48,791 nt of DNA, taken from Qaidamihabitans albus (GTDB taxonomy: Bacteria > Actinomycetota > Actinomycetes > Mycobacteriales > Pseudonocardiaceae). The notes under the pieces are model-generated. The model had not been told where the DNA came from. It did not search any database and saw nothing but the letters and a program-made list of their open reading frames with translations. Positions 40,238-48,457 of the stretch are shown in pieces (the stretch's first letter is position 1; every line of letters starts with the position of its first letter). The stretch covers positions 352,282 through 401,072 of the forward strand of contig NZ_JAEHOB010000005.1 in the NCBI RefSeq assembly GCF_016464705.1, given 5' to 3'. Position numbers and translations under genes: made by a program.

Positions 40238-40513
40238 TTATCGCTCCTGGGGATGGGTCGCCAGCGCCTCGACGGTGACGTCCATCCACTTCCACATCGG
40301 CAGCGACGTGAGCGCCTCGTGCAGCGTGGCCGGGTCGTCCGCCTCGTAGAGGCCGACCGTGGCGTTGCGCCCGGGAACCCGCCACAGCCGCTTGAGCACT
40401 CCCGCCTCCCGCAACTGCTGGGCCCGCTCACGTTCCGCCCGGCGAAGCCGCTCGCGGGTGTCGTCGGGCGTGTCGGGCGGCAGCAGGTTCTCCGTGCGTA
40501 CGAGAAATTCCAT
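40238..40513 (-). CDS. Muconolactone delta-isomerase family protein
   Basis: The 91-residue protein begins MEFLVRTENLLPPDTPDDTR and continues through the MIase ferredoxin-like fold (LKRLWRVPGRNATVGLYEAD, then LTSLPMWKWMDVTVEAL). Canonical muconolactone isomerase (CatC) works in the beta-ketoadipate pathway, but no catA or catB is near. Instead it stands at the end of a LigAB cluster, where a tautomerase for 4-oxalomesaconate would be useful; that role is inference. ATG 40513 has GGAGG five bases upstream. A palindromic terminator separates it from the hydrolase gene. Confidence 0.85.
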   Translation of the reverse strand: MEFLVRTENLLPPDTPDDTRERLRRAERERAQQLREAGVLKRLWRVPGRNATVGLYEADDPATLHEALTSLPMWKWMDVTVEALATHPQER

Positions 40514-40568
40514 CGTCCCTCCGGTTGCCGGTAGGTGTTGTCAGCGCGGCGTCGTGCCTGGTCACCTC

Positions 40569-40612
40569 TCGTGAGTGAGGAACCGGGTTAGAACTCGGTT
40601 CCTCACTCACGA
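40569..40612. repeat. Perfect 17-bp palindrome, dispersed repeat family copy 3
   Basis: TCGTGAGTGAGGAACCG (40569-40585) pairs perfectly with 40596-40612. The ten-base loop GGTTAGAACT contains the family core GTTNNAAC. It lies between the alpha/beta hydrolase stop and the MIase start and may terminate or attenuate the lig operon. Confidence 0.86.
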
Positions 40613-40616
40613 CGCG

Positions 40617-41318
40617 CTAGGCGACGGTGAGCAGTACGTCGGCGAGTTCCTTCGGTGCGGTGACCATCGCCTCGTGACCGGTCGCGAGGTGGTGCACCGG
40701 CCAGCCTCGGGCCGCGGCCTTCTCGGCGTGCGGCCGGAACACCCGCATCCAGTCGGTGCACTCGACGAAGGTCGCGGGAACCGCGTCACCGGCTCCACTC
40801 AGCCGCAACGGCTCGGTGTAGGTGAGCCACGGGTGCGGCGTCAGGCGCGGGCCGAGCCAGTCGAGGTCGGCCTGCTCCGACACACCGAGCACGCTCAGCG
40901 AGCGCACCGGGATGAGCCAGCCGAACCCGGGGCCAGCCACCGATTCGCGGTAGTGCCCGGCCACCTTCGCTGGCAGCAGGTCGATGGCGGCGTCGCCGTC
41001 GTCGCCCACGAAGGCGTCGAGGTAGACGCGCCTGCCGAGCCGGCCGGGGATGCGGTCGGCGACTGCGGTGACGACCTGGCCTGCGTAGCTGTGCCCGACG
41101 AGGACCACGTCACCGAGGTCGTGCGCCTCGACGAGCGCCACGACGTCCTGCGCGTGCGTGCTCAACCCGACCGAGGGGCTGAGCAGGTGCGCGCGGTCGC
41201 TGACCCCGGTCAGGGTCGGTGCGTACACCTCGTGGCCCGCGGCCCGCAGTGCCGGGATCACCCGCTGCCACGCCCATCCGCCGTGCCAGGCACCGTGCAG
41301 CAGTACGAACGTGCTCAT
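40617..41318 (-). CDS. Alpha/beta hydrolase
   Basis: The 233-residue protein has the oxyanion-region motif LLHGAWHGGWAW, nucleophile elbow GHSYAG (Ser77) and a late His in ATGHEAMVT. It belongs to the esterase branch near salicylate-esterase and hydroxynitrile-lyase-like proteins. ATG 41318 overlaps the ligB stop by four bases, so it is coupled to ring cleavage. It may hydrolyse an ester or lactone of the aromatic substrate or ring-cleavage product, for example replacing the LigI lactonase; the reaction is not determined by sequence. Confidence 0.85.
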   Translation of the reverse strand: MSTFVLLHGAWHGGWAWQRVIPALRAAGHEVYAPTLTGVSDRAHLLSPSVGLSTHAQDVVALVEAHDLGDVVLVGHSYAGQVVTAVADRIPGRLGRRVYLDAFVGDDGDAAIDLLPAKVAGHYRESVAGPGFGWLIPVRSLSVLGVSEQADLDWLGPRLTPHPWLTYTEPLRLSGAGDAVPATFVECTDWMRVFRPHAEKAAARGWPVHHLATGHEAMVTAPKELADVLLTVA

Positions 41319-46239: not shown

Positions 46240-46931
46240 GGAACGTCGTCGTCACCGGCCCACCCCGCGCGGATCCGGACCAGGTCACCGACCTCGCCGG
46301 GTACGGCGTCGCGACGGTGCACGAGGCGCTGGGGCGCACCGGTTTCCTCGGCCCCGGGCTGCGGCCGGTGCACCTCGGCTCGCACGTCGGCGGCACCGCC
46401 GTCACCGTGCTGTGCTGGCCGGGGGACAACCTGATGATCCACGCCGCGGTCGAGCAGTGCCGCCCCGGCGACGTCCTGGTCGTCACCACGACGTCACCGT
46501 GCTCCGACGGCATGTTCGGCGAGCTGTTCGCCACCGCCCTGCAGGTCCGCGGCGTGCGCGGGCTCGTCACCACCGGGGGCGTACGTGACGTCGCCGAGCT
46601 GCACGAGATGCGCTTTCCCGTGTGGTCGGCGGCGGTCAGCGCGCAGGGCACGGTGAAGGCCACCCCGGGTTCGGTCAACGTGCCGATCACCGTGGGCGGG
46701 CAGCTCGTCCGGCCCGGTGACGCGATCATCGCCGACGACGACGGCGTGCTGGTCGTACCCCGCGACGACGTCGGCGCGGCACTCGATGCCGCACAGGCCC
46801 GGGTGGACAAGGAACAGGCCGCCCGGGAGGCGTTCCGCGGCGGCGAGCTCGGCCTCGACCGGTACGGCCTGCGCTCCCGCCTCGCCGAACTCGGTGTCGA
46901 GTACGTGGACGCCGGGGACTACGGAACCTGA
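46236..46931 (+). CDS. ligK: 4-Carboxy-4-hydroxy-2-oxoadipate aldolase/oxaloacetate decarboxylase, RraA fold (GalC/LigK type)
   Basis: The 231-residue protein has the RraA fold with the class II pyruvate aldolase motif TTGGVRDVAEL (Arg and Asp of the GxxRD signature) and a preceding DGMFGELFATAL with the metal-binding region. It cleaves 4-carboxy-4-hydroxy-2-oxoadipate to pyruvate and oxaloacetate. ATG 46236 overlaps the galB stop codon, so hydratase and aldolase are made together. Its C-terminal extension (RLAELGVEYVDAGDYGT) is typical of the LigK branch. Confidence 0.9.
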   Translation: MRNVVVTGPPRADPDQVTDLAGYGVATVHEALGRTGFLGPGLRPVHLGSHVGGTAVTVLCWPGDNLMIHAAVEQCRPGDVLVVTTTSPCSDGMFGELFATALQVRGVRGLVTTGGVRDVAELHEMRFPVWSAAVSAQGTVKATPGSVNVPITVGGQLVRPGDAIIADDDGVLVVPRDDVGAALDAAQARVDKEQAAREAFRGGELGLDRYGLRSRLAELGVEYVDAGDYGT

Positions 46932-46937
46932 CGCCGG

Positions 46938-46950
46938 TACGTCATATGAC
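46938..46950. promoter_or_regulatory. Operator-like site upstream of ligM, matching the one upstream of galB
   Basis: TACGTCATATGAC (46938-46950) contains the perfect palindrome GTCATATGAC and matches TACGTCGAATGAC (45416-45428) upstream of galB at 11 of 13 positions. It is about 100 bases before the ligM start, in a 119-base gap after ligK, suggesting that ligM has its own regulated promoter. Confidence 0.6.
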
Positions 46951-47050
46951 CCGATCCACCTCCACCATTCCGCTATGCCGTCCCTCACTCCGCCTCCGTA
47001 GCTTGAGGCCGGAGAAATCGCCGACGGCGCCGAACGAGAACGGGTAACAC

Positions 47051-48457
47051 ATGAGCGCGAAGAACCTGCAGGAACTGCTGGACCAGTCGGGAAGCACGGT
47101 AGACCTCCTCCGCAACTCGCAGCTGGGGGCCTACATCTACCCGGTCGTCCCCTCCGAATTCACCAACTGGCGCCGCGAGGTGACCGCCTGGCGCGAGACG
47201 GCGGTGCTGTTCGACCAGACGCATCACATGGTCAACCTCTTCATCTCCGGGCCCGGCGCGCTGCGGCTGCTCTCCGACACCGGGGTCAACAACATGGACA
47301 ACTTCCCCGTGGACATGGCCAAGCAGTTCGTGCCGGTCTCCCCCGAGGGAGGCGTCATCGGCGACGGCATCCTGTTCCGGCTCGCACAGGAGGAGTTCAT
47401 CTTCGTCGGCCGCGCGCCGGTGGCCAACTGGCTGACGTTCCGGGCCGAGCACGGTGGCTACAAGGTCGACATCCGCCGCGACGAGCGCTCACCCTCGCGG
47501 CCGTACGGCAAGCCGGTCACGCGCGACGTGTGGCGCTTCCAGATCCAGGGTCCGAACGCGTGGCAGGTCATCGAGAAGGTCAACGGCGGCCCGGTCGAGC
47601 AGGTCCGCTTCTTCCGGATGGGCCACCTGAACGTCGCGGGCGAGCGGGTCCGCACGCTCCGCCACGGCATGGCGGGAGCGCCCGGCCTCGAGATCTGGGG
47701 ACCCTACGGCAGCTACGACCGGGTGCGCGACGCCATCCTCGAAGCAGGCCGGGAGTTCGGTCTCGAACCGGCCGGAGCGCGAGCGTACTCGTGCAACACG
47801 CTGGAGTCGGGCTGGATCCCCTCCCCCCTTCCCGCCGTCTACACGAGCGAGGAGCTCCGGCCGTACCGGGAGTGGCTCGGCCCGGACAGCTACGAGGCAC
47901 TCAACGCGGTGGCCGGGAGCTTCGTGTCCGAGCGGATCGAGGACTACTACCTCAACCCGTGGGAGCTCGGCTACGGCTCGTTCGTCAAGTTCAACCACGA
48001 CTTCATCGGGCGTGACGCGCTGGCGGCCATCGAACCGGAGACGCAGCGGCGCAAGGTGACCCTCGCGTGGAACGCCGAGGACGTGGGCAAGCTCCTCGCC
48101 TCGCCCGTCGACCGGGACGGGCCGAGCTACCAGTTCTTCGACCTGCCCAACGCCAACTACGGGTCGTCCAACTTCGACTCCGTGCTCGACGCCGACGGCA
48201 ATGTCGTCGGGCTTTCCCTGTTCACCGGCTACAGCGCGAACGAGCGCACCGCGCTCTCGCTCGCGACGGTGAACCCCGACGTCCCGCTGGGCGCGGAGGT
48301 CACGGTCGTCTGGGGAGAGCCGGACGGCGGAACCCGCAAGACCACCGTGCAGCCCCACGAACAGCTCCCGGTGCGGGCCATCGTGAGCCCGGCGCCCTAC
48401 TCGGTGATGGCGCGGGAGAGCTACCGGCCCGGATGGCGCACCGCCGTCACGGTCTGA
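47051..48457 (+). CDS. ligM: THF-dependent vanillate/3-O-methylgallate O-demethylase (LigM/DesA family)
   Basis: The 468-residue GcvT-fold protein closely follows the LigM sequence I remember from Sphingobium SYK-6: [68 protein letters not shown] and [14 protein letters not shown]. LigM moves the methoxy methyl of vanillate or 3-O-methylgallate to THF, giving a catechol-type acid and 5-methyl-THF. Linked metF, folD and purU recycle the folate, and linked ligAB-galB-ligK degrade the ring. Syringate (DesA-type activity) is also possible. It starts at ATG 47051. Confidence 0.93.

What the first reader, a model, noticed from the sequence alone, without database searches (positions are those of the whole stretch)
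40238..48457. Apparently complete cluster for methoxylated aromatic acid to pyruvate, oxaloacetate and formate
LigM, MetF, FolD and PurU form a closed THF cycle that strips a methyl group and releases formate, while LigAB, a GalB-type hydratase and a LigK-type aldolase carry the ring to central metabolites. All genes are adjacent, overlapping or divergent over 8 kb. The 4,5-cleavage route is best known from sphingomonads and pseudomonads. Linked LigM-type demethylation and extradiol gallate cleavage in an actinobacterium would be unusual. Ending C1 oxidation with PurU, not with a formate-THF ligase as in SYK-6, means no ATP is gained but THF is freed quickly.
Basis: partly seen in the sequence, partly recalled or inferred. 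Interest (0 to 1): 0.78.

Follow-up and report, generated by a model that had tools for sequence, protein, structure and literature searches.

The report
Actinobacterial lignin-acid demethylation and ring-opening cluster
This is a gene cluster with which a soil-type actinobacterium very probably strips methyl groups from lignin-derived aromatic acids and breaks open the ring; the pathway type is known and the cluster is shared by many actinobacteria, but it carries two unremarked enzymes that suggest a different order of steps from the one first proposed.

Summary
The genes are there and mostly well named: LigM, a divergent MetF, FolD, PurU, LigA, LigB, a GalB-type hydratase and a LigK/GalC aldolase, in two divergent units. 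These travel together (both in 29 of 66 long loci, 1 each alone) and with LigAB (29 of 35). Pseudomonas NGC7 uses an α/β-hydrolase on CHMOD, the methyl ester left when 3-O-methylgallate is ring-opened (PMC12314914). Best reading: LigM/THF demethylation plus a 3-O-methylgallate branch whose last methyl leaves as methanol. The rarity claim fails: the 80 closest LigM loci are all actinobacterial, and 14 of 66 long ones carry the same nine genes. PurU-ended methyl-THF oxidation is known from chloromethane degraders; a formate-THF ligase lies in this same window. 'Complete' is unproven: no oxalomesaconate tautomerase in the cluster, no DesA found in the genome, contig end 334 bp after ligM. FolD and LigA share one uninterrupted frame here, unlike in 10 relatives. 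A palindrome (TACGTC-N4-GAC) marks the regulon. New variant of a known kind.

The parts
36562..37899 (+). MFS metabolite:H+ symporter, candidate aromatic-acid uptake (membership in the system is inferred)
   Evidence: TIGR00883 385.8 bits, below its cut-off of 443; MFS homologues lie in several relative loci
37932..39515 (+). PAS/GAF-HisKA_3 sensor histidine kinase
   Evidence: Pfam; HK in 24 of 35 LigB loci and in 1 of 31 loci without LigB
39512..40228 (+). LuxR-type response regulator, candidate binder of the TACGTC palindrome
   Evidence: PF00072 + PF00196; 4-bp overlap with the kinase gene
40238..40513 (-). MIase-family (PF02426) protein, proposed isomerase/tautomerase of the ring-opened acid
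   Evidence: PF02426 107.5 bits; TIGR03221 81.6, below its cut-off of 130.6; paired with the hydrolase in 29 of 66 loci
40617..41318 (-). alpha/beta-hydrolase, SABP2/MES methylesterase-like; proposed CHMOD methylesterase
   Evidence: PF12697; AlphaFold model pLDDT 79.2, best Foldseek hit 6tj2, SABP2-like; Ser77 and His215 invariant in 30 of 30
41315..42175 (-). LigB, catalytic subunit of a type II extradiol dioxygenase (TTG start at 42175 proposed, 8-bp overlap with ligA as in R. opacus)
   Evidence: NF009903 387.5 bits; 334 bits to 1b4u_B with conserved active-site motifs; start:
42168..42512 (-). LigA, small subunit of the same dioxygenase; in frame with folD, no stop between them
   Evidence: PF07746 123.2 bits; 81.6 bits to 1b4u_A; for the shared frame
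42513..43388 (-). FolD, methylene-THF dehydrogenase / methenyl-THF cyclohydrolase (frame runs on into ligA)
   Evidence: PF00763 and PF02882
43399..44271 (-). PurU, 10-formyl-THF deformylase
   Evidence: TIGR00655 369.3 bits over its cut-off
44268..45152 (-). Divergent MetF (methyl-THF oxidising type proposed)
   Evidence: Best solved relative 7xg9 99.7 bits; every other solved MTHFR at most 35 bits; a canonical metF lies elsewhere in the genome
45415..45430 (.). Perfect palindrome TACGTCGAATGACGTA in the divergent metF/galB region, candidate operator
45517..46239 (+). GalB-type (PIG-L) 4-oxalomesaconate hydratase
   Evidence: 5cgz_A 269 bits, residues 1-240 of 240
46236..46931 (+). LigK/GalC CHA aldolase
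   Evidence: NF006731 324.4 bits
46938..46950 (+). TACGTCATATGAC, second candidate operator, upstream of ligM
47051..48457 (+). LigM, THF-dependent vanillate/3-O-methylgallate O-demethylase
   Evidence: NF047885 907.8 bits; 718 bits over nearly the full length to the solved LigM 5x1i

Best explanation
A methoxyaromatic-acid catabolic island of a kind found in many actinobacteria. LigM moves the methyl group of vanillate and/or 3-O-methylgallate (3MGA) to THF. The divergent MetF oxidises methyl-THF, FolD takes it to 10-formyl-THF and PurU releases formate and THF. LigAB opens the ring of 3MGA and/or gallate. When 3MGA is opened, the product CHMOD still bears a methyl ester; the alpha/beta-hydrolase removes it as methanol, the MIase-family protein isomerises the product towards 4-oxalomesaconate, GalB hydrates it and LigK splits it to pyruvate and oxaloacetate. 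A sensor kinase/response regulator next to the cluster probably controls both divergent units through TACGTC-N4-GAC sites. Shown here: gene identities, order, conservation, co-occurrence, motif. Inferred: all substrates, the roles of hydrolase and MIase, direction of MetF, and regulator-site pairing.
For: LigM equivalog score and near full-length match to solved LigM. LigAB with conserved PCA-dioxygenase active-site motifs. GalB and LigK matches. Among the genes annotated at 36.5-48.5 kb none is a candidate CHMS dehydrogenase or PDC lactonase for the PCA branch, while the genome has both subunits of PCA 3,4-dioxygenase over their cut-offs, so PCA has another outlet. The hydrolase gene overlaps ligB; hydrolase and MIase both in 29 of 66 long loci, one alone in 1+1, neither in 35; LigB-hydrolase 29 both, 6 LigB only, 1 hydrolase only, 30 neither. 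Hydrolase fold nearest to SABP2-type carboxyl methylesterases. NGC7 precedent: deleting mgaC, an alpha/beta-hydrolase, makes PDC accumulate from syringate (PMC12314914, section 12 read). A LigM-linked MTHFR oxidises methyl-THF in SYK-6 (PMC12585457, whole abstract). Motif: 2 places (3 strand matches) in the window against 0.19 matches expected; 25 of 29 sites in 66 loci lie within 450 bp upstream of a cluster gene.
Against: 6 of 35 LigB loci show no hydrolase in the held stretch, and 1 locus has hydrolase and MIase without LigB. No DesA found in this genome, so syringate to 3MGA would need another enzyme (one VanA_C Rieske gene exists, specificity unknown) or 3MGA must come from outside. LigM itself should be able to remove the methyl group of 3MGA, which would bypass the hydrolase. 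The hydrolase superfamily is broad; its catalytic acid was not placed (by my hand alignment the usual Asp position is not acidic; Glu186 and Asp101 are invariant). The MIase role rests on neighbourhood only. folD and ligA are not separated by a stop here, so one of the two may not be made as in relatives.
Confidence: 0.56

Rival explanations
1. One reading: LigM takes 3MGA fully to gallate; LigAB opens gallate directly to 4-oxalomesaconate; the hydrolase is accessory and the MIase replaces the missing OMA tautomerase.
For: LigM is an equivalog of vanillate/3MGA demethylase. The OMA-tautomerase group is in 7 of 35 LigB loci but in 22 of 23 loci with the VOC dioxygenase, so MIase might stand in for it.
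Against: Gives the ligB-overlapping hydrolase no task, although it is nearly always paired with MIase and mostly with LigAB; 7 loci carry both MIase and the OMA-tautomerase group, which argues against simple replacement. LigB is of LigAB type rather than DesB/GalA type (gallate dioxygenase model 310.5, cut-off 412).
Confidence: 0.26
2. Vanillate/protocatechuate 4,5-cleavage: LigAB opens PCA, and the alpha/beta-hydrolase removes the aldehyde carbon of CHMS as formate (as C-C hydrolases of meta-cleavage do), giving a new short route to pyruvate.
For: LigB is closest to SYK-6 PCA 4,5-dioxygenase among solved structures; no CHMS dehydrogenase or PDC lactonase seen in the cluster; LigK-family aldolases also take HMG (recalled; the family is named HMG/CHA aldolase in the search listing of PMC5065237).
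Against: None of the 50 structural matches listed for the hydrolase is titled as a meta-cleavage C-C hydrolase; they are methylesterases, hydroxynitrile lyases, pyrethroid hydrolase, methylketone synthase, BioH3 and the like. PcaGH exists elsewhere in the genome. GalB's best solved relative hydrates oxalomesaconate.
Confidence: 0.1
3. The cluster acts on an unrelated methoxylated catechol, not on a lignin acid.
For: No substrate data; the family models do not fix the substrate.
Against: LigM equivalog score far above cut-off, and GalB plus LigK together point to oxalomesaconate chemistry.
Confidence: 0.08

Closest known systems
Sphingobium lignivorans SYK-6 LigM / S6MTHFR / LigAB system
   Same: LigM-type demethylase with an MTHFR that oxidises methyl-THF; LigAB, oxalomesaconate hydration and LigK aldolase
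   Different: Here one compact divergent locus; PurU instead of LigH in the cluster; GalB-type instead of LigJ-type hydratase; SABP2-like hydrolase and MIase; no DesA, LigC, LigI or LigU recognised in the cluster
Pseudomonas sp. NGC7 Mga/Gal syringate pathway (PMC12314914)
   Same: Two-subunit LigAB-like dioxygenase, alpha/beta-hydrolase, small putative isomerase, GalB, GalC
   Different: NGC7 uses Rieske VanAB (formaldehyde), MgaD is SnoaL-like not MIase, and GalD is present; here THF-dependent LigM and no GalD in the cluster
Methylobacterium extorquens CM4 cmu methyl-THF module (metF2, folD, purU; PMC3621897)
   Same: Divergent MetF, FolD and PurU dedicated to catabolic methyl-THF oxidation
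   Different: Methyl donor is chloromethane through corrinoid enzymes
Rhodococcus opacus DSM 44186 plasmid pRop44186_a island
   Same: All ten catabolic genes (ligM, ligK, galB, metF, purU, folD, ligA, ligB, hydrolase, MIase) plus kinase/regulator homologues
   Different: Adds a DesA-like gene, folC, pabB, folP, folE and formate dehydrogenase genes; folD and ligA separate; lies on a plasmid typed as mobilizable
Pseudarthrobacter/Arthrobacter PCA 4,5-cleavage operons (PMC8431788)
   Same: 4,5-cleavage in Actinobacteria
   Different: Single fused PcaA dioxygenase specific for PCA with some gallate activity

Membership tests
LigM vanillate/3MGA O-demethylase | NF047885 equivalog cut-off 580 bits | tested here: met
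   907.8 bits
LigM vanillate/3MGA O-demethylase | Methyl transfer from vanillate or 3MGA to THF | not testable with these tools
   needs enzyme assay
DesA syringate O-demethylase | NF047633 cut-off 800 bits | tested here: not met
   606.8 bits for the window protein; no other full-length family member found in the genome with the LigM model
LigAB PCA 4,5-dioxygenase | LigB subfamily cut-off and active-site motifs | tested here: met
   NF009903 387.5, cut-off 317; motifs conserved against 1b4u_B
LigAB PCA 4,5-dioxygenase | LigA equivalog TIGR02792 cut-off 108.6 | tested here: not met
   94.2 bits
DesB/GalA gallate dioxygenase | PRK13367 equivalog cut-off 412 and fused subunits | tested here: not met
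   LigB 310.5 bits; LigA and LigB in separate ORFs
GalB oxalomesaconate hydratase | Full-length similarity to 5cgz | tested here: met
   269 bits, 1-240 of 240
LigK/GalC CHA aldolase | NF006731 cut-off 179 | tested here: met
   324.4 bits; TIGR02798 292.5 just under its cut-off of 304.5
PurU | TIGR00655 cut-off 286 | tested here: met
   369.3 bits
Canonical MetF | TIGR00676 cut-off 293.7 | tested here: not met
   67.2 bits
SYK-6-type methyl-THF-oxidising MTHFR | Closest solved relative is the LigM-linked MTHFR | tested here: inconclusive
   7xg9 is by far the best hit; that 7xg9 is the SYK-6 enzyme is recalled, not printed by a call (text search for the code found no such paper)
Muconolactone isomerase (CatC) | TIGR03221 cut-off 130.6 | tested here: not met
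   81.6 bits; PF02426 family itself met
OMA tautomerase GalD/LigU | NF033377 cut-off 440 in cluster or genome | tested here: not met
   no PrpF-family gene in the cluster; the one in the genome scores 311 (prpF 349.5, cut-off 440.6)
MgaC/DesCD CHMOD methylesterase | alpha/beta-hydrolase with nucleophile Ser and His | tested here: met
MgaC/DesCD CHMOD methylesterase | Hydrolysis of CHMOD | not testable with these tools
   needs assay; MgaC sequence not held

The most novel reading that the evidence does not exclude
Actinobacteria have their own 3-O-methylgallate route: THF-dependent demethylation followed by ring opening with one methyl group still on, then ester cleavage by a SABP2-like methylesterase and isomerisation by a MIase-family protein (a fold I have not seen reported for this step), the whole set moving between genera, at least once on a plasmid, and sometimes with its own folate-synthesis and formate-dehydrogenase genes.
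Probability: 0.4. Interest if true: 0.52.

Novelty: new variant of a known kind. Interest (0 to 1): 0.38.

Why it matters
The characterised routes for syringate and 3-O-methylgallate in the papers I saw come from sphingomonads and pseudomonads. A widespread actinobacterial version with a methylesterase/MIase pair would explain how these bacteria deal with 3-O-methylgallate, gives two untested enzyme candidates, and offers a ready-made THF-regenerating demethylation module without formaldehyde release for lignin conversion.

Tried and rejected
Rarity in actinobacteria: rejected. DesA elsewhere in the genome: none found. OMA tautomerase elsewhere: one ambiguous PrpF-family gene on C4; of its neighbours two were scanned, one a histidyl-tRNA ligase, one without match. 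Reading past the window for missing genes: the contig ends there. The R. opacus FdhF in the own genome: only weak matches, 29% identity for the best. Naming 7xg9 from the literature: not found. The Yu 2025 paper on LigM/MTHFR gene sets is not held, so I cannot say which actinobacteria it lists. LigA/DesB specificity residues: by hand count on the alignment the window LigA has Met at the place I recall as LigA Phe103 and no Glu at the DesB Glu377 place; too weak to use. LigC and LigI were looked for only among the annotated genes of the cluster, not genome-wide. Co-occurrence counts use tblastn thresholds chosen by me on the 66 of 80 loci of at least 20 kb; 14 shorter loci were dropped, and 10-kb flanks may cut clusters; Fisher values ignore relatedness. 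The GalD and VOC groups are sequence clusters of which one representative each was scanned (the VOC one stays under the catechol 2,3-dioxygenase cut-off). The MetF alignment used 30 of the 43 relatives listed. Of the 9 other LigM-positive family genomes, 7 were fetched and 5 of those 7 have LigAB beside LigM; two of them (L122, L124) have the contig lengths of L004 and L008, so they are not independent. One mistake caught on recheck: I first took folD and ligA as separate frames and ligB as starting at 42166; searches show the shared folD-ligA frame and the TTG start, and the confidence was lowered from a draft 0.58 to 0.56 for it.
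Full report
What is there. The interval 40238-48457 holds ten genes. Minus strand, in order of transcription: metF-like 45152-44268, purU 44271-43399, folD 43388-42513, ligA 42512-42168, ligB 42175-41315 (TTG start), an α/β-hydrolase 41318-40617 and a MIase-family gene 40513-40238. Plus strand: galB 45517-46239, ligK 46236-46931, ligM 47051-48457. Left of it, on the plus strand, stand an MFS symporter, a PAS/GAF sensor kinase and a LuxR-type regulator, the last two overlapping by 4 bp. 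One oddity: folD and ligA lie in one uninterrupted frame of 406 codons. In 10 of 10 distinct relatives with folD next to ligA (L004, L008, L016, L021, L034, L047, L079, L116, L118, L121) folD has its own stop. Whether the window has a real fusion, an internal ligA start or a sequence error cannot be told here.

How good the names are. LigM scores 907.8 bits against the LigM equivalog (cut-off 580) and 606.8 against DesA (cut-off 800); it aligns over nearly its whole length with solved LigM, 718 bits. LigB passes NF009903 and is closest to SYK-6 LigB (334 bits) before gallate dioxygenase DesB (261 bits); the His/Glu motifs align. LigA passes Pfam but not TIGR02792. The PIG-L protein is full-length similar to solved 4-oxalomesaconate hydratase. 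LigK and PurU pass curated cut-offs. MetF is divergent: 67 bits against TIGR00676 (cut-off 294), with one solved relative, 7xg9, far ahead of the others. The genome has a canonical metF on another contig (287.8 bits) and a third, divergent one inside this window, so the cluster copy looks dedicated.

How common it is. A scan of 84,980 species genomes with LigM found 437 stretches that encode a relative; the best 80 were kept and all are actinobacterial by their record titles (Pseudonocardia, Amycolatopsis, Saccharopolyspora, Streptomyces, Blastococcus, Microbacterium and others). The other 357 were not seen. Of the 66 loci of at least 20 kb, 35 hold LigB and LigA, and 14 hold all of MIase, hydrolase, LigB, LigA, PurU, MetF, GalB, LigK and LigM (8 also FolD). 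Within the window's own family LigM passes the cut-off in 10 of 120 genomes, and the one other genome of the genus in that sample lacks it: patchy, as for a mobile trait. Rhodococcus opacus DSM 44186 carries the whole set on plasmid pRop44186_a, typed as mobilizable. In a tree of 73 LigM-family rows the window protein is nearest to Saccharopolyspora, Amycolatopsis, Halopolyspora and Prauserella rows, inside a supported set of 30 rows (98/95) that also holds Streptomyces, Nonomuraea, Actinomadura and Klenkia, and apart from a DesA-like branch of 15 rows (100/100). PCA 4,5-cleavage itself was characterised in Pseudarthrobacter, whose authors still call PCA 4,5-dioxygenases almost exclusively proteobacterial (PMC8431788, passages); a LigM-type gene in an actinobacterial MAG has been reported (PMC9296663, passages).

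The two overlooked genes. Hydrolase and MIase occur together in 29 of 66 loci, hydrolase alone in 1, MIase alone in 1, neither in 35. LigB with hydrolase: 29 both, 6 LigB only, 1 hydrolase only, 30 neither (Fisher p 1e-11, not corrected for relatedness). In the other common layout (Microbacterium and relatives) a VOC-type extradiol dioxygenase stands beside an OMA tautomerase (NF033377 for the representative); 21 of 23 loci with the VOC gene lack LigB, and 21 of 23 lack the hydrolase and likewise the MIase. So the pair follows LigAB rather than LigM. The hydrolase model (pLDDT 79.2, under 50 in 38-43 and 130-146) is nearest to a Paenibacillus hydrolase described as homologous to a tobacco salicylic-acid-binding protein, and to SABP2, MES16, hydroxynitrile lyases and pyrethroid hydrolase. 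Ser77 and His215 are invariant in 30 of 30 sequences; the acid is not settled. A paralogue 50% identical lies on C7 of the own genome, so the family is not confined to this cluster. In Pseudomonas NGC7 a LigAB-like MgaAB opens 3-O-methylgallate to CHMOD, and the α/β-hydrolase MgaC frees methanol; its deletion makes PDC pile up (PMC12314914, section 12 and passages). The N. aromaticivorans paper likewise names DesC and DesD as the proposed enzymes for CHMOD to OMA (PMC8091115, passages). I therefore propose the same task for the window hydrolase and an isomerase role, like that proposed for MgaD, for the MIase protein. This is inference.

Which ring acid. The genome has PCA 3,4-dioxygenase with both subunits over the curated cut-offs, so PCA from vanillate has an outlet, and no CHMS dehydrogenase or PDC lactonase was seen among the annotated genes of the cluster. 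That favours 3MGA or gallate as LigAB substrate. DesA was not found in the genome, while 32 of 66 loci have a DesA-like second enzyme (at least 55% to the R. opacus copy, which itself stays under the DesA cut-off). A VanA_C Rieske gene with a reductase-like neighbour exists elsewhere. Syringate use by this strain is thus uncertain.

C1 end. MetF-FolD-PurU for catabolic methyl-THF oxidation is the chloromethane module of M. extorquens CM4, where metF and purU are needed for growth and MetF2 is only 25% identical to E. coli MetF (PMC3621897, passages). SYK-6 couples LigM to an MTHFR that runs in the oxidative direction, and the authors state that many bacteria have similar gene sets (PMC12585457, whole abstract; PMC13001107, passages).

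Regulation. TACGTC-N4-GAC occurs at two places in 48.8 kb (3 strand matches, 0.19 expected): a perfect palindrome at 45415-45430 between the divergent units, and 46938-46950 before ligM. With up to 3 mismatches the 16-mer is not enriched (9 found, 15.5 expected), so the claim rests on exact cores. In the 66 loci there are 29 sites against about 10 expected, 25 of them within 450 bp upstream of ligM, ligA, metF, galB or the kinase/regulator genes. Loci with a kinase/regulator homologue: 20 sites in 26 loci (3.5 expected; 17 loci have at least one, 9 have none); without: 9 sites in 40 loci (6.5 expected; 8 loci have at least one).

Verdict. Real, largely as named, ordinary in kind, widely shared, with an unremarked hydrolase/MIase pair that changes the likely order of steps. 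The listings of my searches for an existing description showed no paper titled or abstracted as describing a MIase-family protein in this pathway; I did not read those papers in full, most subscription papers are not held, and the key Yu 2025 paper was not readable.

Noticed in passing
window 42168-43388: folD and ligA share one uninterrupted 406-codon frame; in 10 of 10 distinct relatives folD ends with its own stop. Fusion, internal start or sequence error.
   Followed up: partly
window 7020-15129: A second THF-linked C1 cluster on the minus strand: ETF, dimethylglycine-oxidase-like, formate-THF ligase, another divergent MetF (41% identical to the cluster MetF in a profile alignment) and a DmdA-like demethylase (NF009133 320 bits, cut-off 410).
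   Followed up: partly
window 45415-45430 and 46938-46950: Conserved operator-like motif TACGTC-N4-GAC shared by relatives, mainly in loci with the kinase/regulator pair.
   Followed up: yes
L048-L082, Microbacterium-type loci: LigM-GalB-LigK-OMA tautomerase clusters without LigAB carry a VOC (type I) extradiol dioxygenase instead, a possible new gallate or 3MGA dioxygenase; MetF and PurU are mostly absent there (MetF in 3, PurU in 1 of 23 VOC loci) and a MetE-like gene is often nearby.
   Followed up: partly
L116 (R. opacus plasmid) and 15 of 66 named loci: Folate-synthesis genes (pabB, folP, folC-like, folE) sit in or beside these demethylation loci; the R. opacus island also has formate dehydrogenase genes. 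A dedicated folate supply, as hinted at by folC2 on pCMU01.
   Followed up: partly
window 27209-28288: Intradiol ring-cleavage dioxygenase gene, closest to chlorocatechol/catechol 1,2-dioxygenase models but below their cut-offs.
   Followed up: no
window 48458-48791: The window and its contig end 334 bp after ligM, so the right border of the cluster is unknown.
   Followed up: yes
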